Source: Lentzea fradiae (GTDB taxonomy: Bacteria; Actinomycetota; Actinomycetes; Mycobacteriales; Pseudonocardiaceae). From it: a DNA stretch of 64,000 bases. The position numbers and the translations under genes are program-made. Below, in pieces: positions 28,021-58,429 of this stretch. The notes under the pieces were generated by a model. The model did not search any database and was not told the DNA's origin. It worked only from the letters and a program-made list of their open reading frames with translations. Position 1 is the first letter of the stretch. Every line of letters begins with the position of its first letter. Location of the stretch: contig NZ_FNCC01000010.1 of NCBI RefSeq assembly GCF_900100955.1, forward strand, positions 346,674-410,673, read 5' to 3'.

Positions 28021-28404
28021 CTAGTCGCTGTCGGGCAATCCGGGCACCAACCTCAGTGTGCGGTTGCTGCGTGGATCAGTGCGCTTCTCGGCCTCGTCGA
28101 CCTGCCGGATCAGCTCGTTGCGAACCTCGCCCAGCGCCGCGGACAGATCGCGCGACGAGGACGTGGCGATGAAGTGCAGGCGGGGCCGGCAGTTGATCCA
28201 GCATTCCAGGGTGACTCGCTGCTCTGCGCCCTGACGGTCCTTCAGGCTGATTTCCAGATCGACCTCGTCGTTGCGGAATGACCGCAACCTCAGGCCGAGC
28301 GCAGCCAGGCGTTCCGAGACCCAGCCGCGTTCGGATGAGAGAAATCCGGTGGCGAGGCGTAGGCGCTGGGCGACGATTGCCACGCCTTCACGAGTGTCGG
28401 GCAT
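28021..28404 (-). CDS. HPF/RaiA-like ribosome-associated protein, copy 1
   Basis: The 127-residue protein has the beta-alpha-beta3-alpha pattern of the HPF/RaiA domain: VSERLAALGLRLRSFRND, then VDLEISLKDRQG, then RLHFIATSSS, then a helix ALGEVRNELIRQVDEAEKR. Such proteins bind the 30S decoding region and silence or protect ribosomes in stress. It lacks the long C-terminal dimerisation domain of long HPF, so it is a short type. It is closely similar over its full length to the protein at 30132. ATG 28404 has GGAAGG close upstream. Confidence 0.72.
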   Translation of the reverse strand: MPDTREGVAIVAQRLRLATGFLSSERGWVSERLAALGLRLRSFRNDEVDLEISLKDRQGAEQRVTLECWINCRPRLHFIATSSSRDLSAALGEVRNELIRQVDEAEKRTDPRSNRTLRLVPGLPDSD

Positions 28405-29450
28405 GCGCCTTCCGATCCTTTGTGGAGTGTGCGCCTCTGTTGCCGGGCAATGACTTACCGGCGTTTCAGGCTGTACTTCGCGGTTCCTGCACAGGTTCGA
28501 GGAAGAGGTTCACGCAGGACAGCTGCTCGTCGGGGGAACCGGATTTTGCGAGTTAGTGGTGTTCTTCGGGATGACTGAACAGCTCGTCCACCGTTTCGGG
28601 ACGCGACATGTTCTGGTTTCTCATGGTTCCGACTTTCTTCGCGTCCCGCGCTGAAGCCGAAGTGGCTACACGGCGCGAGGGATTGGGAAGTGCGAAAGCG
28701 CATCTGCCCCACAGACACAACCCTACACCTCATCGTGTTCGCACGAATCCTCTGTGGCACCTCCCTTGCGGGACAAGCGAAGTCGTTCGGGAAGATTCCC
28801 GAAGCCCCAGAACAGTCATGCGCAGATGTTGATCCGGCCGCAGTGGCGAGCGCACGTGGGATCGGTGTAGTGGGAGCAGAAGTCGCCGCACACCGTCGTT
28901 CACACCCGAAGCCTGAACGGCGGCCGCAGGACGCGCCCGAGACTGAAGTCAGTGCGTCGCTTCGCTACTGAGGTCGTCCGCCCTTCGTTGCGCGCGCTTG
29001 CACTGACTCCCACGCCATCGCCCGCGTGTCGCGCACCGTCTCCATCTGTGCTTTCAGGCTCGACCACATCGAGCTCGCCCCGATCATCGAACTGACGACT
29101 GCACACCCAGGAATACCCAGAACTCCGCGACCTGTACATCCGACGAACCAAGCCCGCCGACGCCACACGCTGCGTCTCGCAAATCTCGAGCTGTTCGACC
29201 GCACAGCGCGTCGCCGTTCTGGCCTGATTCACCACCTGCCTGCAGCGCAGCAGCTGCTCAGGTATGACGGTGCTGGCGATCGGCCTGCGGGCTCGGCCAC
29301 GGAGGCGCAGGTGACGCGTGTGACCGAGCGACGGTGATACTGGCGGTGGACGAGTAGTTATCCATGAATGCGACCGACATCGCGCCCAGGATGTCCGCCA
29401 CCGGGCTGCCCCCTACAAGCCGGGAGCCGGTCTTGAGCACGACTCCGGTG
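28405..29450. other. Gene-poor 1-kb stretch
   Basis: No frame here shows convincing protein features; the open frames are low-complexity Arg/Ser text. No hairpins, tRNA or known repeats were recognised. It sits in the scar zone between decayed genes and is probably degraded sequence. Confidence 0.5.
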
Positions 29451-29626
29451 TCACCAGGGTCGCTTGGCCGGAGCGACGAGCGCAGGGACATCGATGGCCG
29501 GGTCGGTCGACAACGGTCGCCAGCCCCCGGAAAGTGCCTGTCGGACATCGCGTCTGGTTTCAATGGCAGCCTCAGACCGTGTCGTACGGTCAACGCCGCA
29601 GTAGCGCAGAGCAGATCCGAGGTCAT
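29451..29626 (-). pseudogene. DUF5994-like mini-gene broken by one-base deletion
   Basis: From ATG 29626 the text MTSDLLCATAALTVRHGLRL is followed by LKPDAMSDRHFPG. A one-base loss in the GGCGGC run then shifts the frame; restored, it reads GWRPLSTDPAIDVPAL and stops at 29451. The restored product, about 58 residues, aligns along its length with the 59-residue protein at 58137. The two genes also share about 45 bp upstream, with the same GGAGGCGGGAGC ribosome site and a structured leader. Confidence 0.7.
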
Positions 29627-29670: not shown

Positions 29671-29733
29671 CGCCCAAGGCGGCACCAGCTTGACCGCCGG
29701 TGCTACGACATGCCTTCGGTAACCTCATCCTAC
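29671..29733 (-). promoter_or_regulatory. Structured leader, copy B
   Basis: TAGGAT (29727-29732, read on the minus strand) is followed by CCGAAGG...CCTTGG outer pairing and a seven-base inner stem CACCGGC/GCTGGTG with hexaloop GGTCAA. One of four copies in the window. It precedes the broken mini-gene by 45 bp. Confidence 0.65.
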
Positions 29734-30131: not shown

Positions 30132-30515
30132 CTAGCCGAGTTCGGGTGGTGTCGGGACGGACCGCAGCGCGCGGTTGCTGCGCGGCTCGGTGCGGGTCTT
30201 GGTCTCGCCGACCTGACGGATCAGTTCGTCGCGGACCTCGTTGAGCGCCGCGGGAAGCTCTCGCTGGGACGAGGTGGCGACGAGGTGCAGCCGATGGCCG
30301 TGGTTGATCCAGCACTGCAGCATGACGCGCTGCTCGACGCCCTTGCGGTCTTTGAGGCTGATCTCCAGTTCGATCTCGTCGTCGCGGTACGACCGCAGAC
30401 GGGAACCGAGCGCGGCCAGGCGATCCACGACCCAGTCGCGTTCGGACGAGTGGAAGCCGGCGGCGAGGTGCAGTCGCTGCGCGATCACTGAAGCATCTTC
30501 GGGAGTTGCGTTCAT
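30132..30515 (-). CDS. HPF/RaiA-like ribosome-associated protein, copy 2
   Basis: This 127-residue paralogue is collinear with the protein at 28021: VVDRLAALGSRLRSYRDDEI, then LEISLKDRKG, HRLHLVATSS and ALNEVRDELIRQVGE. It would bind the small ribosomal subunit in stress or stationary phase. Its ATG 30515 has no ribosome site of its own. Instead an eight-codon frame with a strong GAGGAG site ends in ATGA over this ATG, so its translation is probably coupled to that leader peptide. The last residues (PTPPELG) match the remnant at 27832. Confidence 0.75.
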   Translation of the reverse strand: MNATPEDASVIAQRLHLAAGFHSSERDWVVDRLAALGSRLRSYRDDEIELEISLKDRKGVEQRVMLQCWINHGHRLHLVATSSQRELPAALNEVRDELIRQVGETKTRTEPRSNRALRSVPTPPELG

Positions 30516-30538
30516 GCGTTGTCGCTGACGGTGCTCAC
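30512..30538 (-). CDS. Eight-codon leader peptide coupled to HPF copy 2
   Basis: GTG AGC ACC GTC AGC GAC AAC GCA TGA (peptide MSTVSDNA) follows GAGGAG with 8-nt spacing. Its TGA overlaps the HPF ATG as ATGA. The HPF gene lacks a ribosome site, which makes re-initiation likely. Confidence 0.5.
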   Translation of the reverse strand: MSTVSDNA

Positions 30539-30865
30539 TGAAATCTCTCCTCATGACCAAGACGAACCGCCTGCCCGACGAGCGAGCGGGAAGCTGCCCT
30601 CAGCCTCAAATCTGAAAACGTCGAAATAATCTCTTTCGCATACTCTATACCACCCGCGCGCATTATCACCTGAAATTCACATGAGAATCCGACGATGGCA
30701 ACCCTTCGGCCGCCGAGCGGCACAGCTCCGCCCCGCATCCGCCCCACCACAGGGCATCTAGCAGCGAAAACGGATAGATCGGCGGTGTCGCGACTGAAGC
30801 TTCGCGGATGCCCACCGACGACACGAACAACGCGAAACTTTTCAGTCGATCACAACTGAAACGGT

Positions 30866-30935
30866 GTATGGTTGATTTTGTCGAGAACATCTCGCACCTG
30901 AGCGGTCAAGCTCAGGTCGTACTCGACGAAACCTG
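30866..30935 (+). promoter_or_regulatory. Structured leader, copy D, upstream of DUF5994
   Basis: TATGGT (30867-30872) is followed by a perfect six-base outer stem GTCGAG/CTCGAC (30880-30885 with 30922-30927). A perfect eight-base inner stem ACCTGAGC/GCTCAGGT (30896-30903 with 30910-30917) carries hexaloop GGTCAA. It is the best-formed of four related leaders. It ends about 40 bp before the DUF5994 start. The region upstream (30561-30860) is AT-rich and shows no gene. Confidence 0.7.
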
Positions 30936-30972
30936 AACCGGCAGTTTTCTCTGGCCGAGACTGGAGTCCGGC

Positions 30973-31467
30973 ATGACGCCGGTCCCTCACCGATCCACCG
31001 CCCCAAGGGCCGCCGACGACGCTGACGAACAGCAGCCCCGGTCTCCGCTGCGACTGCGCCTGCGGCCGCAGGCGCCTGCCACGGGATACGTCGACGGCGC
31101 CTGGTGGCCACGTTCCCACGACCTCACCACCGAACTGCCCGCCCTGCTCGCAGTGCTGAACGTCCGGCTGGGTGAGATCCCCAGAGTGAACTACCACCTC
31201 AGCGACTGGGACACCGCGCCGCGCCGCATAGCCGCCGACGGCATCCGGGTCCGGCTCGACGGGTTCTGGACCAGGCCCGCCCACACCGTGGACCTGATCG
31301 CCTCAGACCGGCGCCGCCTCACCCTGCTGCTCGTTCCCCCCGACACGTCCTCAGCGGCCGCACATGAAGCGATGATGCGCGCCGCACACCGCGACAACAC
31401 CGACACCGTCGAGGACCTGTTTTCCTCGACCGCCCTCCAGACCCAGGTACCACAGCCGAGAGAGTGA
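30973..31467 (+). CDS. DUF5994 family protein
   Basis: The 164-residue protein has the family core LRLRLRPQAPATGYVDGAWW, then PRSHDLTTELPALLAVL, followed by a beta-rich part (VNYHLSDWDTAPRRI, about 90-105). No signal peptide or membrane helix. DUF5994 proteins are actinobacterial and of unknown function; they often sit among stress and ANTAR genes. ATG follows CTGGAG. The 51-residue gene at 31474 comes 6 bp later and is probably co-transcribed. Two DUF5994-like mini-genes lie elsewhere in the window. Confidence 0.85.
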   Translation: MTPVPHRSTAPRAADDADEQQPRSPLRLRLRPQAPATGYVDGAWWPRSHDLTTELPALLAVLNVRLGEIPRVNYHLSDWDTAPRRIAADGIRVRLDGFWTRPAHTVDLIASDRRRLTLLLVPPDTSSAAAHEAMMRAAHRDNTDTVEDLFSSTALQTQVPQPRE

Positions 31468-31473: not shown

Positions 31474-31629
31474 ATGACAGCGTCGACCTACGTGTCCCTG
31501 TACGAGCGCAGGCTCAAGCTGGTTCAGGACACCCTGACCGAGCATTCCGAGCTCAGCGCCGAATCCTCGCGAGCTCTCGCCGTGCACGTGCTGGGCGCAC
31601 TGGACCACATCCCCGAGCACATCCGTTGA
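31474..31629 (+). CDS. Small protein, DUF6307-like
   Basis: The 51-residue protein reads MTASTYVSLYERRLKLVQDT, then a helical middle and ends ALDHIPEHIR. It is mostly alpha-helical and amphipathic. I recall this pattern as the DUF6307 family; the assignment is tentative. AGAAGAG precedes the ATG, and the gene starts 6 bp after the DUF5994 stop, so the two form an operon. Confidence 0.7.
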   Translation: MTASTYVSLYERRLKLVQDTLTEHSELSAESSRALAVHVLGALDHIPEHIR

Positions 31630-31677
31630 TCGAGCAACACACCTGAGTGGTTCGCGAGCGCCTGCTGTCCCAGCCGG

Positions 31678-31702
31678 GTTTGCGCCCTGCGCGGCAGGGA
31701 AA
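31678..31702 (+). promoter_or_regulatory. SigF/SigB-type promoter GTTT-N15-GGGAAA
   Basis: GTTT at 31678-31681 and GGGAAA at 31697-31702, 84 bp upstream of the AI-2E gene start. The -10 variant GGGAAA is near the known SigB/SigF consensus GGGTAT. Confidence 0.5.
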
Positions 31703-31785
31703 TCCGAGCAGAGACAGGCAGCCACCTGCCGACTCACCGATGACCCCCCGGACCCCGGCGTCGGAAATCGACACTGGAGGCGTTG

Positions 31786-32946
31786 GTGAGCACCGACCGC
31801 GGTGAAGTGCCGCCCGAACGAAGCCCGATTCCAGCTGTGCTGCGGGTCGGCGCAGCGTTGAGCTGGCGCTTTCTCGTCGTGGTCGCGGCGCTCTACGTAA
31901 TCGGTGTCATCTTCAGCAGGCTGGCGGCACTCGTCGTGCCGCTCGCGATCGCGCTGCTGCTGGCCGCCTTGCTCGCACCGGCCGTCGGTTTCCTGATGGC
32001 ACACCGAGTTCCCCGAGGTCTCGCCACCGCGCTGGTCCTGGTCGGCGGACTGCTCGTGCTCGGCGGAATGTTGACGTTCGTCGTGGTGACCTTCGTCAAC
32101 GGCCTGCCGGACCTGGCAGCGCAACTGGCCCGAAGCATCGACACGATCTCCGGCTGGCTCGTCAACGGCCCGCTGCAACTGAGCGAGACCCAGCTGAGCG
32201 ACTTCGCCGACCGGATCCTGAAAACCTTGCAGGACAACCAGTCCGGCATCACGACGGGCGCCATCACCACCGCCGCGACAGTCGGCGAGACCCTCGCCGA
32301 GATGCTGCTGGTGCTGTTCGCGCTCGCGTTCCTCCTCTACGACGGCCCCCGGATCTGGCAGTTCCTCATCCGCGTCGTTCCCGACGGACCCCGCAGGCGG
32401 GTCGACGTGGCAGGCAGGCGCAGCCTCGCCGCACTGGTCAGCTACGTCCGCGCCACCGGAGCGGTCGCGGTGGTGGACGCGGTCGGTATCGGCATCGGAC
32501 TGGCCGTGCTGCGCGTACCGCTGGCGGTTCCGCTGGCGGCGCTGGTGTTCATCTGCGCGTTCGTCCCGATCTTCGGCGCGGTGGTGGCCGGTGCCGTCGC
32601 CGTCCTCATCGCACTCGTCGCGAACGGTCCCCTGACCGCGGTGATCGTCCTGATCATCGTCATCGCGGTGAACCAGCTCGAAAGCCACATCCTGCAACCA
32701 TTCCTGCTGGGACGCGCGGTGAAGCTGCACCCGCTCGCGGTGGTGCTGGCCATCGCGGCAGGCCTGCTCGTCGCAGGCATCGCGGGCGCGCTGCTCGCCG
32801 TTCCCCTGCTGGCGGTGCTCAACTCCGCGATCCGCTCCCTGCGCAGCGATGCCGACGAACACGTGTCACCCGCCGACGTGCACACCAGCCAGCCAGAAGA
32901 GTCCGGACCGGACGAACCCGGCCTGGACACCGAAGCCGAGAAGTGA
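31786..32946 (+). CDS. AI-2E family transporter (PF01594 type)
   Basis: The 386-residue protein has paired helices at the start (about 25-75), a cytoplasmic or periplasmic middle (about 100-190), and a C-terminal set of helices including NQLESHILQPFLLGRAVKLHP, the family's signature. Members transport small molecules; some are Na+/H+ antiporters and others autoinducer-2 exporters. GTG 31786 has GGAGG at good spacing. The tail of about 40 residues is acidic. A SigF-like promoter precedes it. Desaturase gene follows after 41 bp. Confidence 0.87.
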   Translation: MSTDRGEVPPERSPIPAVLRVGAALSWRFLVVVAALYVIGVIFSRLAALVVPLAIALLLAALLAPAVGFLMAHRVPRGLATALVLVGGLLVLGGMLTFVVVTFVNGLPDLAAQLARSIDTISGWLVNGPLQLSETQLSDFADRILKTLQDNQSGITTGAITTAATVGETLAEMLLVLFALAFLLYDGPRIWQFLIRVVPDGPRRRVDVAGRRSLAALVSYVRATGAVAVVDAVGIGIGLAVLRVPLAVPLAALVFICAFVPIFGAVVAGAVAVLIALVANGPLTAVIVLIIVIAVNQLESHILQPFLLGRAVKLHPLAVVLAIAAGLLVAGIAGALLAVPLLAVLNSAIRSLRSDADEHVSPADVHTSQPEESGPDEPGLDTEAEK

Positions 32947-32987
32947 AACCCACAACGGCTCACCGCAGCCACCCCCGGAGCAGGTAC

Positions 32988-34130
32988 ATGACCTCAACGC
33001 ACGTCGTCCCGACAGACACGACTGATCGCCCTCGCGGTAGCGACTTCGCCCGCCTCACCAAAGAGCTCAAGGCCGCCGGCCTGCTGAACCGCCGACGCGG
33101 CTACTACCTGTTGCGGATGGCGGTCAACGCGCTGCTGCTCGGCGCGATCGCCGTGACGTTCGTGATGGTGGGTGACTCCTGGTGGCAACTGGTCACCGCA
33201 GCCGTCCTGGCCGTGGCCTCGACGCAACTGGCGTTCATCGGCCACGACGCCGGCCACCGGCAGATCTTCCGCAGCCACCGCAACAACGACATCGTCGGGC
33301 ACCTGCACGGCAGCCTCACCGGCATCAGCTACCAGTGGTGGGTCGCCAAGCACAACCGCCACCACGCCAACCCCAACCACGAGGACCACGACCCCGACAT
33401 CGAGATCCACGCCCTCGCCTTCAGCCGCGCCCAGGCCGCCCGGAAACGCGGCCTGTACAGCTGGATCACCAAGCACCAGGCGTTCCTGTTCTTCCCGCTC
33501 CTGCTGGCGGAAGCCGCCGTGCTGCGCATCTCCGGCCTCATCGCGTTGTGCCGCAACGAACTGCGAAACCCGTGGCGCGAAGCCGCGCTCCAGATCGTGC
33601 CGATGATCGCCTACCTGGCGGCGGTGTTCCTCGTGCTGTCGCCGGCGAAGGCGATCGTGTTCATCGCCGTGCACCAAGGCCTCATGGGCGTCTACCTCGG
33701 CTGCTCCTTCGCACCCAACCACAAGGGCATGCCGATCATCACCGAGGGCCAGCGCCTCGACCACCTCCACAAGCAGGTGCTCACCTCCCGCAACGTCACC
33801 GGCGGCCGCTGGGTCGACGCCCTGCTCGGCGGCCTCAACCACCAGATCGAGCACCACCTCTACCCGCACATGCCCCGCCCCAACCTGCGGCACGCGCAAC
33901 CCCTCGTCGAGAACTTCTGCCTCCGGCACGGCATCCCCTACAGCAAAACCACCCTGCGCCACTCCTATGCCCAGGTACTGCGCCACCTGCACGACGCCGG
34001 CTCACCCCTCCGCCACCAGCCGGGTGACGCCCGCAGCTCCACGAACACCGAAGCCCGCCGGTTGGACCCAACCGGCGGGCTTCGGTGTTCGTTCACGCAC
34101 GCCGCTGTTCAGCGGCTCAGCAAGAACTAG
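32988..34130 (+). CDS. Membrane fatty acid desaturase
   Basis: The 380-residue protein has the histidine boxes GHDAGH (about 85-90), HNRHHAN (about 123) and HQIEHH (about 285), with four membrane helices. This is the acyl-lipid desaturase type, using di-iron to add a double bond and adjusting membrane fluidity. ATG 32988 has GGAGCAGG upstream. The last 28 or so codons run through a perfect 52-bp palindrome, and the stop overlaps the convergent cold-shock gene's stop. The native C-terminus may once have been shorter. Confidence 0.9.
34041..34092. terminator. 52-bp near-perfect palindrome, bidirectional terminator
   Basis: Two 25-base arms match without error around a 2-base centre (ACGAACACCGAAGCCCGCCG... 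and its inverse). It lies between the convergent desaturase and cold-shock genes but inside the desaturase frame. It should stop transcripts from both sides. Confidence 0.8.
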
Positions 34131-34330
34131 GCGGGGACGACGTTGTCCGCCTGCGGGCCCTTCTGGCCCTGAGTGACCTCGAAGGAGACCTTCTGGCCCT
34201 CCTGGAGCTCGCGGAAGCCCTGGGCGGCGATGTTCGAGTAGTGGACGAACACGTCCGCGCCACCGCCGTCCTGCTCGATGAAGCCGAAGCCCTTTTCAGC
34301 GTTGAACCATTTGACGGTTCCGGTGGCCAT
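34127..34330 (-). CDS. cspA: Cold-shock protein, CspA family
   Basis: This 67-residue beta-barrel protein has the two RNA-binding motifs KGFGFI (about 13-18) and VFVHYS (about 27-32), opening [14 protein letters not shown]. It binds single-stranded RNA and DNA and melts secondary structure. ATG 34330 follows GGAGCGCAC. The gene stands alone, converging on the desaturase; cold shock protein next to a desaturase suits a membrane and temperature-stress role. The 580 bp to the Asp23 gene hold one SigF-like promoter and no other gene. Confidence 0.95.
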
Positions 34331-34706
34331 GTGCGCTCCAAGCATGATTCGGCACCCGCACGATGCGGAGCCGGAGGTGATCCGCCATGGCCCTCGGAGA
34401 TGCTGAACAGCAAAACGCCCGTGACACGTGATCACGGGCGACCGGTACTTCGGAACCATGACTGATGGCACCACGCTACACGGGCTGCTCGGCGGTGGGT
34501 CCACCGCGTCATCGTCAGACGGTGCGAAGTCCACTTCGGCGTGGACGCCCCCGCGGTGTCCACTCCGGCCGACGTGGACAGCGCGGTGGAAGTCCCGTAG
34601 CCGTCAAGCAGCGGCGTCGTTCTGCGAGGGTGCGTGCTCTGGTTTTCTAGCCCACATCGGACTCGGAAGACGGACTCCGACTCGTCCCGCTACTCGCTCC
34701 GCAGTG

Positions 34707-34731
34707 GTTTGCGGTCCGCATGCCGGGGAAC
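34707..34731 (+). promoter_or_regulatory. SigF/SigB-type promoter GTTT-N15-GGGAAC
   Basis: GTTT at 34707-34710 and GGGAAC at 34726-34731, the only such match in the gap upstream of the Asp23 operon (start 34911). Confidence 0.5.
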
Positions 34732-34910
34732 TCATCAGACATCCAACCGCCCCGGACCCAGGCGACAGGGGATCTCCGGGAGCGTTTCTTCTGCTTCGTT
34801 CTCCTGCACCACTCGCGGCCCCGCCGCGCTCACGTGGCGGCAGCCGTTCGGGTCACAGGAGATCTCCCGGGATCCGCTCCACACCGAACGCAAGATCGAG
34901 GAGACCCGCA

Positions 34911-35390
34911 GTGACCAACCCGACCATCTCCGCAGCCACACCACCTGCGCAGACCACGAACTCCGAGATCGCGACGTCCAACAGGAGCCTGCTCTCCTCC
35001 TCCGAGGGGACGACCACCGTCGCCGACACCGTGGTCCAGAAGATCGCCGGACTCGCCACGCGCGAAATCCCCGGTGTGCACGCGCTGGGCGGAGGCGCGG
35101 CGCGTGCCTTCAGCTCGCTGCGCGAGCGCATTCCCGGCGCCACCGCGTCAGCGGGTCAGGGAGTCTCGGTCGAGGTCGGCGAGCGACAGGCCGCCATCGA
35201 CCTGCACATCCTCGTCGAGTACGGCGTGTCCATCGCGGACCTGGCCAGTGCGGTTCGCCGCAACGTGATCGGCGCGGTCGAGCAGATGACAGGTCTCCAG
35301 GTCGTGGAGGTCAACATCGCGGTCACCGACGTCCACATCCCCGGCGAGGAGGACGACGGCAGGACTCCGGAACCCGGTCGGGTGCAGTGA
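34911..35390 (+). CDS. Asp23/Gls24 family envelope-stress protein 1
   Basis: The 159-residue protein has the Asp23 pattern: TTVADTVVQKIAGLATREIP, then GVHALG, and later DLHILVEYGVSIADLA and GLQVVEVNIAVTDVHIP. The N-terminal 30 residues are Ser/Thr-rich. Asp23 proteins polymerise at the membrane, anchored by AmaP, and are among the most abundant SigB-regulated proteins in staphylococci. GTG 34911 has GAGGAG upstream. First gene of a six-gene, tightly overlapping operon. Confidence 0.9.
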   Translation: MTNPTISAATPPAQTTNSEIATSNRSLLSSSEGTTTVADTVVQKIAGLATREIPGVHALGGGAARAFSSLRERIPGATASAGQGVSVEVGERQAAIDLHILVEYGVSIADLASAVRRNVIGAVEQMTGLQVVEVNIAVTDVHIPGEEDDGRTPEPGRVQ

Positions 35391-35788
35391 GCCCCCAGAT
35401 CGACGCGATGGTCATCGCCACCGCGGTGACGGTCCTTCCCCAGGTGGCGGGACCGCACAGCGGCCGGTACGGGGAGATCGTCACCCTCCTGCCGGGCCGC
35501 AGGGTGGAGGGAGTTCGCCTGCGCACGGACGAGATCGTCATCGGCGTCGTCGCGAGGTACCCGGCCACGACCGCCGAAGTCGATGCGGCCGTGCGCGCCA
35601 CCGTCCACGCCGCGATCGGGAGAGTCGAGTTCCCGGTTCACCTGTGGATCGGCGACATCGCGATTCCCCGCGTCCTGTCGCCCGGCATCACGACCGGGCG
35701 TCGCTCGGCGCGCAAGCTCCCCCTGCCCTCCGCGAGGGCCTGGGCGACGAGCCGCACTCCGGCCACCAGAGCAGGGACAACACCATGA
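35387..35788 (+). CDS. Asp23-like protein 2 (short)
   Basis: The 133-residue protein resembles the second half of an Asp23 domain: EVDAAVRATVHAAIGRVEFP, then VHLWIGDI. GTG 35387 overlaps the preceding stop (GTGA). The C-terminal 30 residues are basic and low-complexity. Probably a partner or divergent copy of Asp23 in the same complex; direct function unknown. Confidence 0.75.
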   Translation: MSPQIDAMVIATAVTVLPQVAGPHSGRYGEIVTLLPGRRVEGVRLRTDEIVIGVVARYPATTAEVDAAVRATVHAAIGRVEFPVHLWIGDIAIPRVLSPGITTGRRSARKLPLPSARAWATSRTPATRAGTTP

Positions 35789-35961
35789 ACTCGACCACCA
35801 CCGGGATGCTCGCGGGCATCGCGCTCGGCTTCGCCGCCGCGTTCGGCGGTTTCGGCGCCTTCATCGTCGTGCTGCTGCTCGGTGCGGCCGGGCTCGTCGT
35901 CGGCAGGGTCCTCGACGGCAAGCTCGACATCTCGGCGCTCTCCGGCCGCGACCGGACCTGA
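35785..35961 (+). CDS. Small membrane protein, DUF2273-like
   Basis: The 58-residue protein has two membrane helices (GIALGFAAAFGGFGAFIVV and on through VVLLLGAAGLVVG) and a short polar tail. Small DUF2273-type proteins are usually encoded in Asp23-AmaP operons and probably help anchor the complex. ATG overlaps the previous stop (ATGA). Confidence 0.75.
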   Translation: MNSTTTGMLAGIALGFAAAFGGFGAFIVVLLLGAAGLVVGRVLDGKLDISALSGRDRT

Positions 35962-35966
35962 CCGTC

Positions 35967-36365
35967 GTGACTCCCGCAGGCCCACCCGCGCAGGAGAACA
36001 CGGACGATCCAGGTGCGCGCGGCAGCCTCACGATCAGCGAAAGAGCTGTGGAGCGGATCGCCTCGCACGCGGCGCTCGAGGTCGACGGCATCGGTGGTTC
36101 CGCACCGCGCGTGCTCGGTGTCACGGTCGGCGCCGAGGAGGCCGAACGGAACGTGCGGATCGCCGCGAGGATCACCGGCGCGGTCGTCGCGCTCGACGTG
36201 CGGCTGTCGATCACCTACCCGGCGCCGGTGGGCAGCACCGCCGAGTCCGCGCGGACACACCTGATCAGCCGGGTCCACGCCTTGACCGGCCTGAGCGTGT
36301 TGAAGGTCGACATCACCGTCACCGCACTGCACCGCGCGGTCGTGACGCCGCGGAGGATCCGATGA
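35967..36365 (+). CDS. Asp23/Gls24 family protein 3
   Basis: This 132-residue full Asp23 domain has ISERAVERIASHAALEVDGI, then ITGAVVALDVRLSITYPAPV, then LTGLSVLKVDITVTAL. It starts at GTG 35967, 5 bp after the previous stop. A second complete Asp23 in one operon suggests hetero-oligomers. Confidence 0.88.
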   Translation: MTPAGPPAQENTDDPGARGSLTISERAVERIASHAALEVDGIGGSAPRVLGVTVGAEEAERNVRIAARITGAVVALDVRLSITYPAPVGSTAESARTHLISRVHALTGLSVLKVDITVTALHRAVVTPRRIR

Positions 36366-36907
36366 AGCGGTTGCCCCGCCGCAGCACACCGGCCGTCCTC
36401 GTGGCTCTGACCGTCCTCGCGGCCTGCGTTCTCGCCGCCGTCGTGTCGGTGCAGACGCTCCTCGGGCAGGACCCGTGGGTCGATCCCCGCGCCGTCTTCG
36501 CCGCTGTGCACGACACCCGCTGGGAAGACCCCGTCGTCGCGCTCACCGCCGCGGTCTGCGTGGTGCTCGGTGCGGGCCTGCTGCTGTGCGCGGTGCTCCC
36601 CGGCAACCCCGTCGTACTGCCACTGCGCGACGACGACCCGGACACCAGGTCCACGATGGACTCCGGGGTCACCCGCCGGAGCCTGCGCAACGTCCTGCGC
36701 ACAGCCGCTTCATCGGTCGACGGCGTCACCGCCGCGAGGCTCACCCTCGGACGGCGCACGATCACCACGACCGTCAGCACGGACCGCACGATCACCGACG
36801 GGCTCGCCGCCGCCGTGCGCGGCGCGGTCGAGAACCGGCTCGACCGCATCCGGCCGGCCATCCGACCAGCCGTGGTCGTCCACGTCAAGGCCAGGAGAAC
36901 ACGATGA
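36362..36907 (+). CDS. DUF6286 membrane protein of the Asp23 operon
   Basis: The 181-residue protein has two membrane helices (about 10-35 and 58-82) followed by a cytoplasmic domain with a DUF6286/Asp23-like layout (RNVLRTAASSVDGVTAARLT, then TDRTITDGLAAAV). ATG overlaps the preceding stop (ATGA). It probably links the Asp23 layer to the membrane. Confidence 0.8.
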   Translation: MKRLPRRSTPAVLVALTVLAACVLAAVVSVQTLLGQDPWVDPRAVFAAVHDTRWEDPVVALTAAVCVVLGAGLLLCAVLPGNPVVLPLRDDDPDTRSTMDSGVTRRSLRNVLRTAASSVDGVTAARLTLGRRTITTTVSTDRTITDGLAAAVRGAVENRLDRIRPAIRPAVVVHVKARRTR

Positions 36908-37572
36908 ACGGCCTCGAGAGGCCAGCAAGGCTCAACCGCGTCGTGCTGGCGGTCACCGGACTGGTGCTGCTCGTCGGCGGCGGTGTCGTGGTGGCCGAGA
37001 CCCTCACCACCCTGAACCTGCTCCGCCCCGACGCCCCTCTCGTTCCCGGCGACGCCCTGCCGCCGACGTGGGTCTGGTACGTCGCCGCGATCGGCTCAGC
37101 GGCTCTCGGGCTCCTGGCGATCCGGTGGCTCGTCGCACAGGCCGACCGCACACCTGAGAGCAGCACCTGGCGATACGACACCGAACCCGGCAGCGGCCGG
37201 ACCGAACTGGCCGCGAGCACTGCCATCACCCCTTTGCTGGCAGAGATCGAGGCCTACCCCGGCGTGCACGCCGTGCACGGCACCCTGGCCGGGCGCCTGG
37301 ACGCCCCGGCTCTGGCACTGGTGATCAGCACGACGCGGGACGGCGAGCCCGGCGCGATCCGGCACGCACTCGTCTCGGAAGGGCTGCCACGACTGCGCCG
37401 AGCCCTCGCCATCGACGAGTTGCCCACGACCGTCGAGTTCCGCCTCACCGACGCGCGCGGCCCGCGGACACCCGCACGACGTGCCCATCGGGAGCAGGCA
37501 CCCGACCTCGGCGCCTCGCCACGTGACGACCGCGGCCCTGCGCCTGCCGAGAACCGCAGCCGTGCGATGTGA
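36904..37572 (+). CDS. amaP: AmaP-like membrane anchor for Asp23
   Basis: The 222-residue protein has two membrane helices (about 12-33 and 58-80) and a C-terminal cytoplasmic domain with an Asp23-like section (ITPLLAEIEAYPGVHAVHG, about 110-128). This matches alkaline-shock-response membrane anchor AmaP. ATG overlaps the DUF6286 stop. It closes the operon; a Pro/Arg-rich tail of about 40 residues follows the domain. Confidence 0.82.
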   Translation: MNGLERPARLNRVVLAVTGLVLLVGGGVVVAETLTTLNLLRPDAPLVPGDALPPTWVWYVAAIGSAALGLLAIRWLVAQADRTPESSTWRYDTEPGSGRTELAASTAITPLLAEIEAYPGVHAVHGTLAGRLDAPALALVISTTRDGEPGAIRHALVSEGLPRLRRALAIDELPTTVEFRLTDARGPRTPARRAHREQAPDLGASPRDDRGPAPAENRSRAM

Positions 37573-37725
37573 GGCTCGCATCGAACTCGTCCGTGTTCGG
37601 CTTGACGGAGGCCACATGACCAGGAGATCCACCGCAGCAGCGCCACACGAGAACGGATTCGGATCGACGATCGTGAGGAGACGTCGCGCGTTCGAGGCGT
37701 ACCTCCACCTGGGGAGGGTGGCGCC

Positions 37726-38157
37726 GTGGATCCCTGGCTCATCTGGCTGATCATCGGGTTGGTTCTGGCCATCGCCGAGATCTTCACGCTCACCGCTGCA
37801 CTCGGCCTGCTCGGCGTCGCGGCGATCACCACGGCGGGGTCGGCGGCGATCGGTCTGCCGATCGCCGGTCAGCTCGTGGTGTTCAGCGTCGTGTCCGCCG
37901 CGGGCGTGGTGCTCGTGAGGCCTTGGGCGCGGCGCATGATGCTGCGACCGCGGCCGGAGCGGTTCGGCGTGGAGGCGTTGGTAGGTGCTTCCGCCTACGT
38001 GCTGCGTGAGGTGAACGACCACGAGGGCCTGGTGCGGCTGCGTGGTGAGGACTGGACGGCTCGCCCGTACGACAGGTCCGTCGTCATCCCGGCCGGAAGC
38101 ACGGTCGACGTACTGCACATCGACGGCACCACCGCCGTCGTCTACCCACGGGAGTGA
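37726..38157 (+). CDS. NfeD-family membrane protein
   Basis: The 143-residue protein has three membrane helices (about 4-75) and a C-terminal OB-fold (GVEALVGASAYVLREVNDHE, then GEDWTARP). NfeD proteins partner with SPFH/flotillin proteins in membrane microdomains. The SPFH gene follows after 3 bp. GTG follows GGGAGG. Confidence 0.9.
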   Translation: MDPWLIWLIIGLVLAIAEIFTLTAALGLLGVAAITTAGSAAIGLPIAGQLVVFSVVSAAGVVLVRPWARRMMLRPRPERFGVEALVGASAYVLREVNDHEGLVRLRGEDWTARPYDRSVVIPAGSTVDVLHIDGTTAVVYPRE

Positions 38158-38160
38158 GCC

Positions 38161-39216
38161 ATGTCCACACTGCTCGTCGCCGGGCTGGTGCTCGCGATCT
38201 TCGCGGTGTTCACCGTGCTGCGCGCTGTGCGCATCGTGCCGCAAGCACGTGCGCGCAACGTCGAACGTCTAGGTCGCTACCAGCGCACCCTCACGCCCGG
38301 CCTGAACTTCGTCATCCCCTACGTCGACCGCGTCTACCCGCCGATCGACCTGCGCGAGCAGGTGGTGTCGTTCCGGCCGCAGCCGGTGATCACCGAGGAC
38401 AACCTCGTGGTGGAGATCGACACGGTGCTGTACTTCCAGGTCACCGACCCCCGGGCCGCCGCCTACGAGATCGCCAGCTTCCTGCAGGCGGTCGAGCAGC
38501 TCACCGTCACCACCCTGCGCAACGTCGTCGGCTCCATGGACCTGGAGAAGACCCTCACCTCACGCGACACGATCAACAACCAGCTGCGCGGCGTGCTCGA
38601 CGACGCGACCGGCAAGTGGGGCCTGCGGGTCAACCGCGTGGAGATCAAGGCCATCGACCCGCCGCAGAGCATCAAGGAGGCGATGGAGAAGCAGATGCGG
38701 GCCGAGCGCGACAAGCGGGCCGCGATCCTCAACGCCGAAGGACAGCGTCAGTCGCAGATCCTCACGGCCGAGGGCGACAAGCAGGCCGCGGTGTTGCGCG
38801 CGGAAGGAAACCGGGCCGCGACCATCCTCAAGGCGGAGGGCGAGTCCCGCGCCATCGACCAGGTCTTCCAGTCAGTGCACCGCAACGATCCCGACCCGAA
38901 ACTCCTCGCCTACCAGTACCTCCAGATGCTGCCCAAGCTCGCGGACGGTCCCGGCAACACCTTCTGGGTGATCCCGAGCGAGGTCACCACCGCACTGCAA
39001 GACGTCTCCAAGGCGTTCTCAGAGGTGCTGCCACGATCAGTCGCCGCCGGGCGCGACGAAGCCGTGGAGGCCGCCGCCGCACAGGCCGAGGAGGACGTCG
39101 CGCGGGCGAGCGAGGCGGCAGCCGCAGCGGTCTCGGACGCCGCGGACGCCGCCGCGCCGGTGAACGCACTGCGACCGGAACCGGCGGGAAGCCGAGAACG
39201 GCGTCGGCCGCGGTGA
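38161..39216 (+). CDS. SPFH/stomatin-prohibitin family protein
   Basis: The 351-residue protein has an N-terminal membrane helix (about 3-22), the SPFH domain (ERLGRYQRTLTPGLNFVIPY through about 185) and a long helical repeat (EGQRQSQILTAEGDKQAAVL). It is the QmcA/stomatin type with an Ala-rich coiled tail. It forms ring-like scaffolds at the membrane with the NfeD partner encoded just upstream. Confidence 0.93.
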   Translation: MSTLLVAGLVLAIFAVFTVLRAVRIVPQARARNVERLGRYQRTLTPGLNFVIPYVDRVYPPIDLREQVVSFRPQPVITEDNLVVEIDTVLYFQVTDPRAAAYEIASFLQAVEQLTVTTLRNVVGSMDLEKTLTSRDTINNQLRGVLDDATGKWGLRVNRVEIKAIDPPQSIKEAMEKQMRAERDKRAAILNAEGQRQSQILTAEGDKQAAVLRAEGNRAATILKAEGESRAIDQVFQSVHRNDPDPKLLAYQYLQMLPKLADGPGNTFWVIPSEVTTALQDVSKAFSEVLPRSVAAGRDEAVEAAAAQAEEDVARASEAAAAAVSDAADAAAPVNALRPEPAGSRERRRPR

Positions 39217-40006: not shown

Positions 40007-40061
40007 AGAGTCCGGTGGCGGTGCAGTCGCAGCTCGACGCCGAGGCACCTCGTGGCCTCGC

Positions 40062-40337: not shown

Positions 40338-40506
40338 GTCCGTCAGGGCACCGGCACAGCACGGAAAGATCATGCCGGAATCATCTTCCACAGTGGACAG
40401 ACGCCGGACGCGGACTCCGCTCGCGCTCCGCTGACGCCGGACCCGACGGCCGGTGGCCGGGTGCGCCCAGGCCGGCCGCCGCGCGCACAGGTGACAGGAT
40501 GCGGTG

Positions 40507-42889: not shown

Positions 42890-42892
42890 GTG

Positions 42893-43476: not shown

Positions 43477-44208
43477 GTGCGCGAACCTGACAGTCGTCGC
43501 CGATCGGTGATCGAAGCGCGCGCCACGGTGATCGCGGCGCTGCGCGACAGCAACAGCGAGCTCGACGTCCTGGCTCGCGTGATCCGCGCGTGCGTGGGCC
43601 TGCTGCCGGTGGACGGCGCCTCGATCTCGGTGCTGAGTGGCCCGCAGGAGCGGGAGACGTTGTACGCCAGCGACGTGATCGCGATGAAGATCGAGAACGT
43701 CCAGTTCGACCTGGGCGAGGGTCCGTGCTTCGAGGCGTTCGCGACCCGCCGGCCCGTGCTGGTTCCCGACCTGTCGCAGGCGTCGGTCCTCGCGTGGCCC
43801 GTGTTCGCGGCGGCGATCGCCGCGCTGCCCATCGGCGCGATCTTCGCGTTCCCGTTGCAGGCGGGCGCGATCGGCATCGGCGCGATCGACCTCTACCGAA
43901 GCCGGCCCGGCTGGTTGTCGGCGGACGAGCTCGCCGTCGCGCTGGAGGTGGTCGACGTGGTGACCGCGGTGCTGCTCGGCGTGCTCTTGGGCGAGTTCGA
44001 CGGCGCCGACGGCCTGCGGGGTGTGCTTTCGCCCGGCCGCGAACAGGTGCACCAGGCGACCGGCATGGTGCTCGCCGCGCTCGGCATCTCCGCGGAGGAG
44101 GCGCTGTCCCGGTTGCGCGGCTACGCCTTCGCGATGGGCAGACCTCTCGACGAGGTCGCCAAGGACATCGTGAACCGCGAGCTGTCCCCGCTGGAGCTCC
44201 GCGCATGA
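43477..44208 (+). CDS. GAF-ANTAR transcription antitermination regulator 1
   Basis: The 243-residue protein has a GAF domain (about 30-165; LGEGPCFEAFATRRPVLVPD) and a C-terminal ANTAR domain (about 188-240; EQVHQATGMVLAALGISAEE then LSRLRGYAFAMGRPL). ANTAR domains bind paired RNA hairpins to control termination or translation. Its GTG start has a weak ribosome site. The second GAF-ANTAR gene follows 72 bp later. Confidence 0.92.
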   Translation: MREPDSRRRSVIEARATVIAALRDSNSELDVLARVIRACVGLLPVDGASISVLSGPQERETLYASDVIAMKIENVQFDLGEGPCFEAFATRRPVLVPDLSQASVLAWPVFAAAIAALPIGAIFAFPLQAGAIGIGAIDLYRSRPGWLSADELAVALEVVDVVTAVLLGVLLGEFDGADGLRGVLSPGREQVHQATGMVLAALGISAEEALSRLRGYAFAMGRPLDEVAKDIVNRELSPLELRA

Positions 44209-44280
44209 CCGCCTGCGAGACCTCGACGGCGGCCCCGTACTGGCAGCACTACCGTCGGACGAAGAAGACAGGAGCTGGTG

Positions 44281-45042
44281 ATGAGCGGTAGCGCACCGTC
44301 CAGGACCGAGCGGGAGTCGCGGTTGCTCCACGCGTTGGTCGAGCTGGCGGACACGCTGGTCGACGACTACGACGTGGTGGACGTGCTGCACCGGCTGGTC
44401 GAACACTGCGTCCAGTTGCTGGACGCGACGGTGGCCGGGTTGATGCTGTCCGACCAGCGCGGCGGCCTGCGGGTGGTGGCCTACTCGTCGGCCCAGACGC
44501 GCACGCTCGAGCTGTTCCAGGTCCAGGCGAGCGAGGGCCCGTGCTACGACTGCGCGCACAGCGGCGAGGCGGTGCTCGTGGCGGACCTGTCGAAGGAGGT
44601 CCAGCGCTGGCCGCGGTTCGCGCCGCTCGCCCTCGCGGGGGGTTTCGCCTCGGTGCACGCCGTACCGATGAGGCTGCGGCGCGAGACCATCGGCACGCTG
44701 AACCTGTTCCGCCACGAGACCGGGTTGCTCAGCGACGAGGACCTGCTGGTCGTGCGCACCCTCGCGGACACAGCGACGATCGGGATCCTGCAGGAACGCG
44801 CCATCCGGCGCGGCGAGGTGGTCACCGAGCAGCTGCAGACGGCGCTGAACAGCCGGGTCGTCATCGAACAGGCCAAGGGTGTGCTCGCGTTCGCCGGGAA
44901 CCTCGACATGGAGCAGGCGTTCCACACGCTGCGCGGCTACGCCCGCAACGGTGGTCGCCGGCTGGCCGATGTGGCCAGAGAGGTCGTTCTCGGCGAACTG
45001 CGCCCCGAGGTCGTCCTCTCACCACGTCCCACCGATCTGTGA
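44281..45042 (+). CDS. GAF-ANTAR transcription antitermination regulator 2
   Basis: The 253-residue protein has a GAF domain (about 25-170; ASEGPCYDCAHSGEAVLVAD) and ANTAR (about 190-245; RVVIEQAKGVLAFAGNLDME then AFHTLRGYARNGG). AGGAG lies 6 nt ahead of ATG 44281; GTG 44278 is too close. Adjacent paralogue of the gene at 43477; the two probably differ in ligand. Confidence 0.92.
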   Translation: MSGSAPSRTERESRLLHALVELADTLVDDYDVVDVLHRLVEHCVQLLDATVAGLMLSDQRGGLRVVAYSSAQTRTLELFQVQASEGPCYDCAHSGEAVLVADLSKEVQRWPRFAPLALAGGFASVHAVPMRLRRETIGTLNLFRHETGLLSDEDLLVVRTLADTATIGILQERAIRRGEVVTEQLQTALNSRVVIEQAKGVLAFAGNLDMEQAFHTLRGYARNGGRRLADVAREVVLGELRPEVVLSPRPTDL

Positions 45043-52658: not shown

Positions 52659-53231
52659 TCAGTCGTCGCCGGGCGGGCGCAGCGACGGGGGCGCCGCCGG
52701 GTCGAGATCGGCCTGGCGGAGGCGGAACACCTGCAGTTCGACGCCGAAGTACTTCGTCGTCTCCCCCACCCAGTGCATGCCGTTGTTCCGCACGGTGGTG
52801 GCGGCGCGGGTGTTGCCCGGCCGCACGACGGCGAAGACCTCGTTCACGTCGTGGCGGAACGCCCACTCGGCGAGCGCGTGGGTCGCCTCGGTCGCGTAGC
52901 CGTTGCCCCACGCATCGGGGCGGAGGTGCCAGCCGACCTCGAGGTCCTCCTCGCCCGGCGGCAGCGGAAGCAGGACCGCGCCGCCGATCAACTGACCGTC
53001 GGCGGTGCGTTCGACCGCCCACCGGCCGGCCGCGGACGGCAGGCGGGCGTTCTCGGCGGCCCACTGCTGCAACAGCAACCGCATCGCCGCCTTGTCCGGG
53101 ACGCGGTCCATCTCCGGGCTGAGCCAGCGGGTCACCTCCGCGTGCCCGTAGATCTCCAGAGCGGCCGGCGCGTCGTCGACCTGCCACGGGCGCAGCGTCA
53201 ACCGCGCGGTGGTGAGGGTTTTCGCGGTCAT
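52659..53231 (-). CDS. GNAT-family N-acetyltransferase (RimJ/RimL type)
   Basis: The 190-residue protein opens LTTARLTLRPWQVDDAPAAL, has the acetyl-CoA loop RPDAWGNGYATEAT (about 108-121) and ends VRNNGMHWVGETTKYFG. It resembles acetyltransferases that act on ribosomal protein or small-molecule amines. The ATG overlaps the small Cys-rich gene stop (ATGA). Transcription probably starts at leader copy A. Confidence 0.88.
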   Translation of the reverse strand: MTAKTLTTARLTLRPWQVDDAPAALEIYGHAEVTRWLSPEMDRVPDKAAMRLLLQQWAAENARLPSAAGRWAVERTADGQLIGGAVLLPLPPGEEDLEVGWHLRPDAWGNGYATEATHALAEWAFRHDVNEVFAVVRPGNTRAATTVRNNGMHWVGETTKYFGVELQVFRLRQADLDPAAPPSLRPPGDD

Positions 53232-53392
53232 GGGCAGATGCAGCCGCGGGGCAGCGCGGACACCGTGGTGGCGGTGCAGTACCGCACACCGAGCGCGTCG
53301 TGCTCGGCCCAGGGGTGGGGACAGACGGCGCAGCTGCCGGTCGTGTCGGGCTGGTCGTCGACGTCGATGATCAGGGGTGTGGACATGGGCAT
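53228..53392 (-). CDS. Small Cys-rich putative zinc-binding protein
   Basis: The 54-residue protein reads MPMSTPLIIDVDDQPDTTGS and then CAVCPHPWAEHDALGVRYC, ending GCICP. Ligands could be CxxC, His, Cys and CxC, a compact zinc site. ATG 53392 has GGAG six bases upstream; ATG 53386 is the alternative. It is preceded by structured leader copy A and coupled to the GNAT gene. Family not recognised. Confidence 0.75.
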   Translation of the reverse strand: MPMSTPLIIDVDDQPDTTGSCAVCPHPWAEHDALGVRYCTATTVSALPRGCICP

Positions 53393-53447
53393 GCGGAACT
53401 CCGATGAGCATGGGCGGGAACGGGGTGATGCCGGGCTGTGTGGTGCG

Positions 53448-53507
53448 CCCAAGGCGGCATCAGCTCGACCGCTGCTGCGCGACATGCCCTCGGTGACTCC
53501 ACCCTAC
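53448..53507 (-). promoter_or_regulatory. Structured leader, copy A
   Basis: On the minus strand TAGGGT is followed by CCGAGG...CCTTGG and GCAT/ATGC pairing. The inner stem CAGCAGC/GCTGATG has hexaloop GGTCGA. It starts about 55 bp upstream of the small Cys-rich gene. Confidence 0.65.
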
Positions 53508-58025: not shown

Positions 58026-58087
58026 GTAGAGTGGGTGGTCCGAGGGGACCTCGCGCATCGGCGACCGAGCCAGGTGCCCCCTGCGGA
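58026..58087 (+). promoter_or_regulatory. Structured leader, copy C
   Basis: TAGAGT (58027-58032) is followed by CCGAGGGGACCT pairing with AGGTGCCCCCTGCGG. The inner stem GGC/GCC has hexaloop GACCGA (58063-58068). It ends 50 bp before the mini-gene. Changes relative to copy A keep the pairing. Confidence 0.65.
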
Positions 58088-58136: not shown

Positions 58137-58316
58137 ATGATCTCGGGCCCGATCAGCACCAGCCTCGACCTCACCACACCACGCGGCCTTCGGATGACGA
58201 GGAAGCCGGACGCGGTGTCCGACGGCCAGTTCCCCGGCGGCTGGCGGCCGCTCGCCACCGACCCCGCCACCACCGTTCCCGCGCTGAACCCGCCGGACTG
58301 GCGGACGCGGGCATGA
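58137..58316 (+). CDS. DUF5994-like mini-protein
   Basis: The 59-residue protein reads LRMTRKPDAVSDGQFPGGWR, matching the N-terminal third of DUF5994 (LRLRPQAPATGYVDGAWW), then ends at WRTRA without the rest of the domain. GGAGGCGGGAGC precedes the ATG. The broken gene at 29626 has about the same length, so this short form seems to be a family in its own right and not a lone truncation. Function unknown. Confidence 0.6.
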   Translation: MISGPISTSLDLTTPRGLRMTRKPDAVSDGQFPGGWRPLATDPATTVPALNPPDWRTRA

Positions 58317-58429
58317 CCCCGCGCACCTGACCGCCGCACCGCGACAGTCCTCAGTGGACTCCCTCTTCGCACCGGACTCGTGCCGGTGCGCCCGTCTGCC
58401 TGCCTCCGACTCGAAAGGCCCGCCGCTTC

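What the first reader, a model, noticed from the sequence alone, without database searches (positions are those of the whole stretch)
30866..30935. Four-copy structured RNA leader with a GGUC(A/G)A-type hexaloop
Four 60-70 bp elements share a layout: copy D 30866-30935 (+), B 29671-29733 (-), A 53448-53507 (-) and C 58026-58087 (+). Each has a TANNNT hexamer (TATGGT, TAGGAT, TAGGGT, TAGAGT), a left arm, a TCGCRCA-like bulge, and an inner stem with a hexaloop (GGTCAA in D and B, GGTCGA in A, GACCGA in C). Arm sequences differ yet still pair: ACCTGAGC/GCTCAGGT in D, CACCGGC/GCTGGTG in B, GCAT/ATGC in A against ACCT/AGGT in C. That is covariation, the sign of a selected RNA structure. The hairpin would sit at the 5' end of each transcript. 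I know of no named RNA family with this form.
Basis: seen in the sequence. Interest (0 to 1): 0.9.

Follow-up and report, generated by a model that had tools for sequence, protein, structure and literature searches.

The report
New stress-gene leader RNA in actinobacteria
A small folded RNA at the predicted start of messages for little-known, probably stress-related genes in this soil bacterium belongs to a widespread, evolutionarily conserved RNA family of actinobacteria that matched nothing in the reference RNA catalogue and whose trigger is unknown.

Summary
The finding is real and larger than claimed. The window is Lentzea; the genome has seven copies, and 22 of 24 Lentzea genomes have credible matches. 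At E <= 0.001 matches occur in 64 of 397 order genomes and 47 of 394 class genomes, the weakest unexamined. The core (P1) is a hairpin with a conserved bulge (YAYNU), a near-invariant CG clamp and a hexaloop NNYYRA. Covariation is strong: 13 of 18 pairs change on both sides, score 0.489 against 0.270 shuffled and at most 0.152 slid. P1 mostly follows a GNGTANNNT hexamer; usually a second hairpin, then the Shine-Dalgarno and start codon, follow at near-fixed spacing. Sixty of 80 DUF5994 loci chosen by protein carry it. It also leads RGCVC, DUF6307, transporter, desaturase, phosphoketolase, STAS, ice-binding and GAF-ANTAR genes. No Rfam match overlaps the elements tested. Best reading: a new cis-regulatory leader, probably controlling translation through a trans factor at P1. 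GAF-ANTAR proteins are the leading, unproven candidates; the known ANTAR loop rule is not met (0 of 90).

The parts
30867..30872 (+). copy D: TATGGT -10-like hexamer (GTGTATGGT)
   Evidence: sequence; motif GNGTANNNT
30880..30927 (+). copy D: P1 hairpin (8-position lower stem, bulge CATCT, CG clamp, upper stem, loop GGTCAA)
30938..30957 (+). copy D: P2 hairpin upstream of the Shine-Dalgarno
   Evidence: sequence; fold of the same leader in L142; P2 regions more stable than shuffles overall
30963..30975 (+). copy D: Shine-Dalgarno GGAG and start ATG
   Evidence: sequence
30973..31467 (+). DUF5994 protein gene led by copy D
   Evidence: PF19457 E 1.7e-39
31474..31629 (+). DUF6307 small protein gene just downstream; elsewhere led by P1 itself (L097, L162, by sequence)
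   Evidence: PF19826 E 2.1e-20
29727..29732 (-). copy B: TAGGAT hexamer
   Evidence: sequence
29672..29720 (-). copy B: P1 hairpin, loop GGTCAA
29643..29659 (-). copy B: P2 hairpin
29258..29626 (-). copy B: short reading frame with the small-protein N-terminus; the family's C-terminal motif lies in another frame, so probably a broken copy
   Evidence: translations
53501..53506 (-). copy A: TAGGGT hexamer
   Evidence: sequence
53447..53494 (-). copy A: P1 hairpin, loop GGTCGA; no clear P2 follows
53231..53392 (-). RGCVC-family small protein gene led by copy A
   Evidence: NF038206 E 5.5e-22
58027..58032 (+). copy C: TAGAGT hexamer
   Evidence: sequence
58039..58087 (+). copy C: P1 hairpin, loop GACCGA, one extra bulged base; most divergent copy
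   Evidence: R1 E 4.8e-8, R3 E 4.6e-6
58139..58318 (+). 59-aa small protein gene led by copy C (PGGWRPLATDPA motif; no NCBIfam name)
43477..44208 (+). GAF-ANTAR protein, candidate class of trans factor
   Evidence: PF03861 E 1.1e-8
44278..45042 (+). GAF-ANTAR protein, candidate class of trans factor
   Evidence: PF03861 E 1.1e-17

Best explanation
A new family of cis-regulatory leader RNAs in actinobacteria. Transcription starts from a GNGTANNNT promoter within a base or two of the foot of P1, so P1 forms the 5' end of the mRNA (inferred from spacing). P1 is a bulged hairpin whose conserved bulge, CG clamp and hexaloop NNYYRA form a recognition site (conservation shown, role inferred). Usually a second hairpin P2, and then the Shine-Dalgarno and start codon, follow at near-fixed distance (shown). 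A trans-acting factor, more likely an RNA-binding protein than a metabolite because at least ten unrelated gene families share the leader, binds P1 and alters translation initiation through the P2/Shine-Dalgarno region (inferred). It thereby co-regulates a set of probable envelope and stress genes (inferred). Confidence is about 0.95 that this is a conserved RNA family, about 0.5 for control of translation, and about 0.25 that the factor is a GAF-ANTAR protein.
For: Covariation: 88.8% of cells paired vs 76.8% shuffled, 13 of 18 pairs with both-side changes, score 0.489 vs 0.270 +- 0.010 shuffled and <= 0.152 slid (90 sequences); unaided RNAalifold gives 15 pairs, 14 of them the same. Fixed place: P1 end to start codon 33-44 nt in 58 of 60 leader-bearing DUF5994 loci; 32-43 nt in 63 of 63 DUF5994-assigned leaders of the named loci and 35-49 nt in 47 of 49 of the other set. 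TANNNT close upstream in 247 of 269 rows over six clade groups, with flanking G's conserved and -35 positions carrying little information (TA and final T were required by the search, the G's were not). P1 and P2 regions fold better than shuffles (mean z -1.40 and -1.53; controls -0.18 and -0.21; 153 sequences). No terminator-like site in the D or B leader. Unrelated families led. ANTAR link: 23 ANTAR proteins in 17 of 80 DUF5994 loci, about 1.2 expected from 268 domains in 141.7 Mb (my arithmetic); three GAF-ANTAR genes preceded by P1 matches.
Against: No transcript, binding or expression data. The published ANTAR loop rule (A1 and G4) is met by 0 of 90 loops, and P2 loops vary in length and sequence. 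P2 is not clear in copy A and L009, and in L162:2628 the start codon follows P1 too closely for one. One of the three P1-led ANTAR genes (L309) has no TANNNT just upstream, and L309 and L310 have no clear Shine-Dalgarno. The DUF5994 neighbourhood is a cluster of signalling and stress genes, so ANTAR proximity need not mean binding. 20 of 80 DUF5994 loci gave no hit in that position. I saw no conserved pairing between P1 and the Shine-Dalgarno (by eye), so how P1 would signal to the ribosome site is unknown.
Confidence: 0.5

Rival explanations
1. A small-molecule riboswitch: P1 (bulge plus loop) is an aptamer for a stress-related metabolite and P2/Shine-Dalgarno is the expression platform.
For: Leader position, conserved unpaired bases in a helix, hairpin next to the Shine-Dalgarno, no terminator-like site in the D or B leader. 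An alternative local hairpin in P1 (CGAG with CUCG) is pairable in 90.8% of cells.
Against: Few conserved unpaired or clamp positions, all in a single hairpin, which is small for an aptamer (judgement). Diverse gene set with no shared metabolite pathway that I can see. The alternative hairpin shows no covariation beyond shuffles (0.213 vs 0.205).
Confidence: 0.2
2. A 5'-terminal mRNA stabiliser, possibly bound by a protein, that protects stress mRNAs from decay.
For: P1 at the predicted extreme 5' end. 5' hairpins that stabilise mRNAs are cited for M. smegmatis gyrase and B. subtilis aprE (titles seen in the reference list of PMC3765725).
Against: A plain stabiliser would not need the conserved bulge, clamp and loop, nor the near-fixed distance to the start codon.
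Confidence: 0.15
3. A divergent ANTAR-target RNA: P1 is bound by GAF-ANTAR proteins with altered loop specificity.
For: About 18-fold excess of ANTAR proteins near DUF5994 loci (two different ANTAR profiles were used); 4 of the genome's 10 ANTAR domains and 5 of its 7 P1 copies within about 38 kb of one contig; three GAF-ANTAR genes preceded by P1; P1 has a hexaloop.
Against: 0 of 90 loops have A1 and G4; no second conserved hexaloop; ANTAR domains are in 16 of 16 and 20 of 20 genomes looked at, so presence alone says little.
Confidence: 0.25
4. DUF5994 protein binds its own leader (autoregulation).
For: 63 of 73 matches at E <= 0.01 in the DUF5994-selected loci and 49 of 92 in the other set precede a DUF5994 frame.
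Against: P1 also leads other families, and 3 of 16 genomes with P1 hits (G117, G077, G1018; 98, 93 and 88% complete) have no DUF5994 match. The predicted fold has no significant PDB match.
Confidence: 0.07

Closest known systems
ANTAR-target RNA (dual hexaloop motif; PMC8164766, PMC8934654)
   Same: Leader hairpin with a hexaloop, often near the ribosome site, in actinobacteria; ANTAR genes lie near many copies.
   Different: No loop with A1 and G4 (0 of 90), only one conserved hexaloop, an extra conserved bulge and clamp, close to the promoter. 'DUF' occurs nowhere in the main text of PMC8164766.
Translational riboswitches (generic)
   Same: Structured 5' leader, usually with a hairpin beside the Shine-Dalgarno.
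   Different: Single bulged hairpin as sensor, many unrelated genes, no ligand known, no Rfam match at the elements tested.
5' stabilising hairpins (e.g. M. smegmatis gyrase; title only)
   Same: Hairpin at the predicted 5' end.
   Different: Here bulge, clamp and loop bases are conserved and the spacing to the start codon is nearly fixed.

Membership tests
ANTAR-target RNA | hexaloop with A at 1 and G at 4 | tested here: not met
   0 of 90 loops; rule from passages of PMC8934654 and PMC8164766; the latter reports only >50% conservation of A and G in actinobacterial predictions
ANTAR-target RNA | two stem-loops, both with hexaloops, short linker | tested here: not met
   P2 usually present but its loop varies in length and sequence (middle of the printed output was cut)
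ANTAR-target RNA | binding by an ANTAR protein | not testable with these tools
   only genomic proximity
Any Rfam 15 family | match to a covariance model at the element | tested here: not met
   none at gathering in the window; none overlapping the elements at E <= 1 in 11 loci
Riboswitch | conserved structured leader with covariation | tested here: met
Riboswitch | ligand-dependent structural change | not testable with these tools
   alternative hairpin pairable but without covariation signal
Intrinsic-terminator attenuator | G+C hairpin followed by U run in the leader | tested here: not met
   none in the D or B leader (one site elsewhere in the region, shuffles mean 1.1); in most leaders printed P2 is followed by GACGGGAG, GGCGGGAG or a like sequence, not a T run

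The most novel reading that the evidence does not exclude
P1 is the RNA code of an actinobacterial post-transcriptional stress regulon: one hairpin at the 5' end of many mRNAs read by a dedicated RNA-binding regulator (GAF-ANTAR proteins with a new loop specificity, some of them led by P1 themselves), in lineages from Lentzea and Mycobacterium to probable Streptomyces.
Probability: 0.25. Interest if true: 0.88.

Novelty: new variant of a known kind. Interest (0 to 1): 0.76.

Why it matters
It adds a well-supported RNA family, unmatched in Rfam 15 at the elements tested and not described in what the paper searches showed me, to actinobacteria. It marks what looks like a co-regulated set of largely unnamed genes (DUF5994, DUF6307, RGCVC) together with desaturases, transporters, phosphoketolase, STAS and ANTAR proteins. 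That gives a handle on what these domains of unknown function do and on post-transcriptional control in the phylum. It also offers a concrete RNA against which actinobacterial GAF-ANTAR proteins can be tested.

Tried and rejected
Single-sequence folding as proof: A, C and E do not beat shuffles; dropped in favour of alignment covariation. Dodecin as a target: my first reading of L098, L100 and L081 was wrong; L098 is an AI-2E transporter and the other two start alike; notebook entry 2 carries the error, entry 3 corrects it. Hits L027, L028 and L029 (of G028, G015 and G004) lie in what looks like coding sequence and were not used for models. Rows dropped: 90 distinct R1 hits became 67 by a 93% identity filter and edge checks; nine degenerate or fragmentary ones were dropped by hand, and five more, copy C among them, before A4/R2. 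For A7/R3 copy C was put back, and weak R2 hits (E up to 3.5) were admitted because they lay just upstream of DUF5994 genes; a few were shifted by a base or, for L173, extended. Local switch hairpin in P1: pairable, no covariation excess. DUF5994 as the binding protein. Intrinsic-terminator attenuation. A sub-threshold cspA thermoregulator match in two mycobacterial loci does not overlap P1. Downstream-gene calls by script are rough: of 92 distinct P1, 49 were assigned to DUF5994, 39 to 'other' (some are wrong-frame picks, e.g. L310's gene in L296) and 4 to none.

Full report
WHAT WAS CHECKED. The four elements are in the sequence as described. The window lies in a Lentzea genome: G005, of the same genus as the window, has a contig of 135,439 bases, the length of a named Lentzea albida contig carrying the closest DUF5994 relative (98%). 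A first model (R1, five sequences) found seven copies in the genome at E <= 4.8e-8, with the next match at 0.09; five of the seven were its training sequences, two were not. Four lie in the window, one just beyond it on the same contig and two on another contig. Among 24 genomes of the genus, the window's own included, 24 had a match at E <= 0.01; two of these (G004, G015) had only one weak match each, in what looks like coding sequence, so I count 22 of 24. Of 16 other genomes in that call two had a match; one (G028) looks like coding sequence, the other (G035) leads a phosphoketolase gene and a divergent gene.

ANATOMY. Ninety sequences (MAFFT alignment A7; chosen by me from R1 and R2 hits, 30 from Lentzea) show one hairpin, P1. 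Its lower stem has eight positions. On the 5' side follows a bulge YAYNU (C/T 87 of 90, A 82, T/C 86, mixed, T 86), then C-G (90 and 90 of 90) pairing with C-G on the 3' side (89 and 87), a single bulged base (C/T 86 of 90), an eight-pair upper stem and a hexaloop NNYYRA (positions 3 and 4 pyrimidine in 89 and 87 of 90, purine at 5 in 84, A at 6 in 74). Thirteen of 18 pairs change on both sides; 88.8% of cells pair against 76.8% in shuffles; the covariation score is 0.489 against 0.270 +- 0.010 shuffled and at most 0.152 with slid partners. The upper stem shows whole swaps such as G-C, A-U and C-G at one pair. Three lower-stem positions are often unpaired (30, 18 and 38 of 90). The shuffle control does not remove relatedness, and R-scape was not available. 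RNAalifold without any given structure returns 15 pairs, 14 of them the same; it pairs the first bulge base (column 15) rather than the clamp C (column 20) with the 3' G, so the exact edge of the bulge is open. An earlier within-group test (53 sequences) agrees.

SURROUNDINGS. A TANNNT lies close upstream in 247 of 269 rows over six clade groups (37 of 39, 17 of 18, 38 of 41, 101 of 110, 23 of 25, 31 of 36). These rows include weak and degenerate hits, and some Lentzea copies count twice because two searches cut them differently. The search imposed T, A and final T; the flanking G's of GNGTANNNT were not imposed and are mostly well conserved. No -35 box is conserved. The spacing puts the start of transcription at about the foot of P1; this is inference. 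Downstream there is usually a second hairpin P2 with variable arms and loop (copy A and L009 show no clear P2), then GACGGGAG, GGCGGGAG or a like sequence and the start codon. P1 and P2 regions fold better than dinucleotide shuffles (mean z -1.40 and -1.53) while coding and upstream controls do not (-0.18, -0.21; 153 sequences at most 85% identical in P1). The start region is intermediate (-0.61). No terminator-like site lies in the D or B leader.

SPREAD. R2 matched 30 of 397 genomes of the order and 5 of 396 of the phylum, all in the same class, at E <= 1e-4. R3 matched 64 of 397 in the order (26 of 85 genera) and 47 of 394 in the class (17 of 138 genera) at E <= 0.001. All four sets include the window's genome and overlap each other. 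Only 13-14 candidates per genome were scored, which loses some; on the other side the weakest matches were not examined one by one and a few may be chance.

THE DUF5994 TEST. The 80 named loci were picked by protein similarity alone. Sixty carry an R3 match (listed at E <= 1) on the same strand just upstream, and in 58 the P1 end lies 33-44 nt before the start codon; in the other two the script set the start upstream of P1. Thirty of the 60 loci gave training sequences, 13 more are Lentzea and one is close to a training sequence; the remaining 16 are mycobacterial and new to the model, though I did not measure how near they are to its mycobacterial training sequences, and three of them score weakly (E 0.1-0.44). 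At E <= 0.01 there are 73 matches in these 654 kb: 63 precede DUF5994 frames, 5 the small protein, 3 RGCVC genes, one (L162) a DUF6307 gene by eye, and one (L149) no clear gene. Twenty of 80 loci had no match in that place.

OTHER GENES LED BY P1. RGCVC (copy A; NF038206), DUF6307 (L097, L162; by sequence), AI-2E transporter (L098), phosphoketolase (L026), alanine-dehydrogenase-like (L271; L278 and L016 by sequence), STAS (L252, L273), CBS (L256), fatty acid desaturase (L301), ice-binding domain (L286; L299, L300, L313, L314 by sequence) and GAF-ANTAR (L291/L315; L309, L310). Some of these families rest on one example. Similar genes sit near DUF5994 loci: desaturase in 22, DUF6307 in 20 and a GAF/ANTAR cluster in 18 of 81 loci, the window included (the simple gene caller misses genes, finding DUF5994 itself in only 58).

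THE ANTAR QUESTION. ANTAR domains are RNA-binding. In the window's genome 4 of 10 lie on the window's contig between 390,711 and 414,339, where 5 of 7 P1 copies lie between 376,342 and 413,342. In the 80 named loci there are 23 ANTAR proteins in 17 loci by a profile of my own from three sequences, against about 1.2 expected from 268 Pfam ANTAR domains in 141.7 Mb of 20 of those genomes (my arithmetic; loci of one genus are not independent). Three GAF-ANTAR genes are preceded by P1 matches (E 2.3e-8, 4.8e-6, 6.7e-6); two have the TANNNT hexamer, L309 does not, and L309 and L310 lack a clear Shine-Dalgarno. Against this, the known ANTAR target needs two hexaloops with A1 and G4 (passages of PMC8934654 and PMC8164766), and 0 of 90 P1 loops have both (A1 in 22, G4 in 1). 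So P1 is not filed as an ANTAR-target RNA; that it is read by an ANTAR protein of other specificity stays open.

DUF5994 ITSELF. The AlphaFold2 model (mean pLDDT 85.9) has no significant PDB match (best Foldseek E 0.17), so its function is unknown. Three of 16 genomes with P1 hits lack a DUF5994 match (98, 93 and 88% complete), so it is unlikely to be the required factor.

NOVELTY. Rfam 15: no match at gathering score in the window and none overlapping the elements at E <= 1 in eleven fetched loci. Paper searches: DUF5994 0 papers, RGCVC 0, DUF6307 1 (a mycobacterial IS paper, listing only); searches on riboswitch and ANTAR terms showed no description of this element in what I saw (listings; abstract, outline and passages of PMC8164766; passages of PMC8934654, PMC12838073 and PMC3765725). 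The library holds open-licence papers only, and no supplementary files could be read.

VERDICT. A real, widespread cis-acting leader RNA family, unmatched in Rfam where tested. Its architecture argues for control of translation by a trans factor. The factor and the signal are not known.

Noticed in passing
window 30840-30861: Inverted repeat TTTCAGTCGATCACAACTGAAA just upstream of the copy D hexamer; similar GATC-centred repeats precede many Lentzea DUF5994 leaders (by eye). Possibly a transcription-factor site; not seen as conserved in the other clade groups.
   Followed up: partly
window 28021-28404 (-) and 30132-30560 (-): Two paralogous proteins; one shows a weak ribosome-hibernation (S30AE) match just below the Pfam cut-off, the other a very weak HPF/YfiA match. 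Relatives occur near DUF5994 in a few other loci.
   Followed up: no
window 29258-29626 (-): The gene behind copy B appears frame-broken while its leader is intact.
   Followed up: no
window 31474-45042: Cluster of probable stress genes: DUF6307, AI-2E transporter, desaturase-like, SPFH-like (by sequence), PAS-SpoIIE phosphatase, STAS, two GAF-ANTAR proteins.
   Followed up: partly
window 30968-30982 and several other DUF5994 starts: The ATG often sits in the loop of a small perfect hairpin whose arms differ between lineages (e.g. CCGGC/GCCGG, GCGTC/GACGC), seen by eye.
   Followed up: no
L212:3420-3766 and L184:5757-6141: Sub-threshold cspA thermoregulator matches (36 and 27 bits, gathering 78) in mycobacterial loci; the first ends shortly before P1, the second lies elsewhere in its locus.
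   Followed up: no
L286, L299, L300, L313, L314: In one family of the order (f16) the P1 leader precedes ice-binding-like (PF11999) proteins; only L286 was scanned, the rest by sequence.
   Followed up: partly
Lentzea and other loci: Unnamed small families recur behind the leader: a 52-62 aa 'GGWRPLSTDPA'-type protein in Lentzea, and in the probable Streptomyces hits an 'EAARxVADALR' protein.
   Followed up: no
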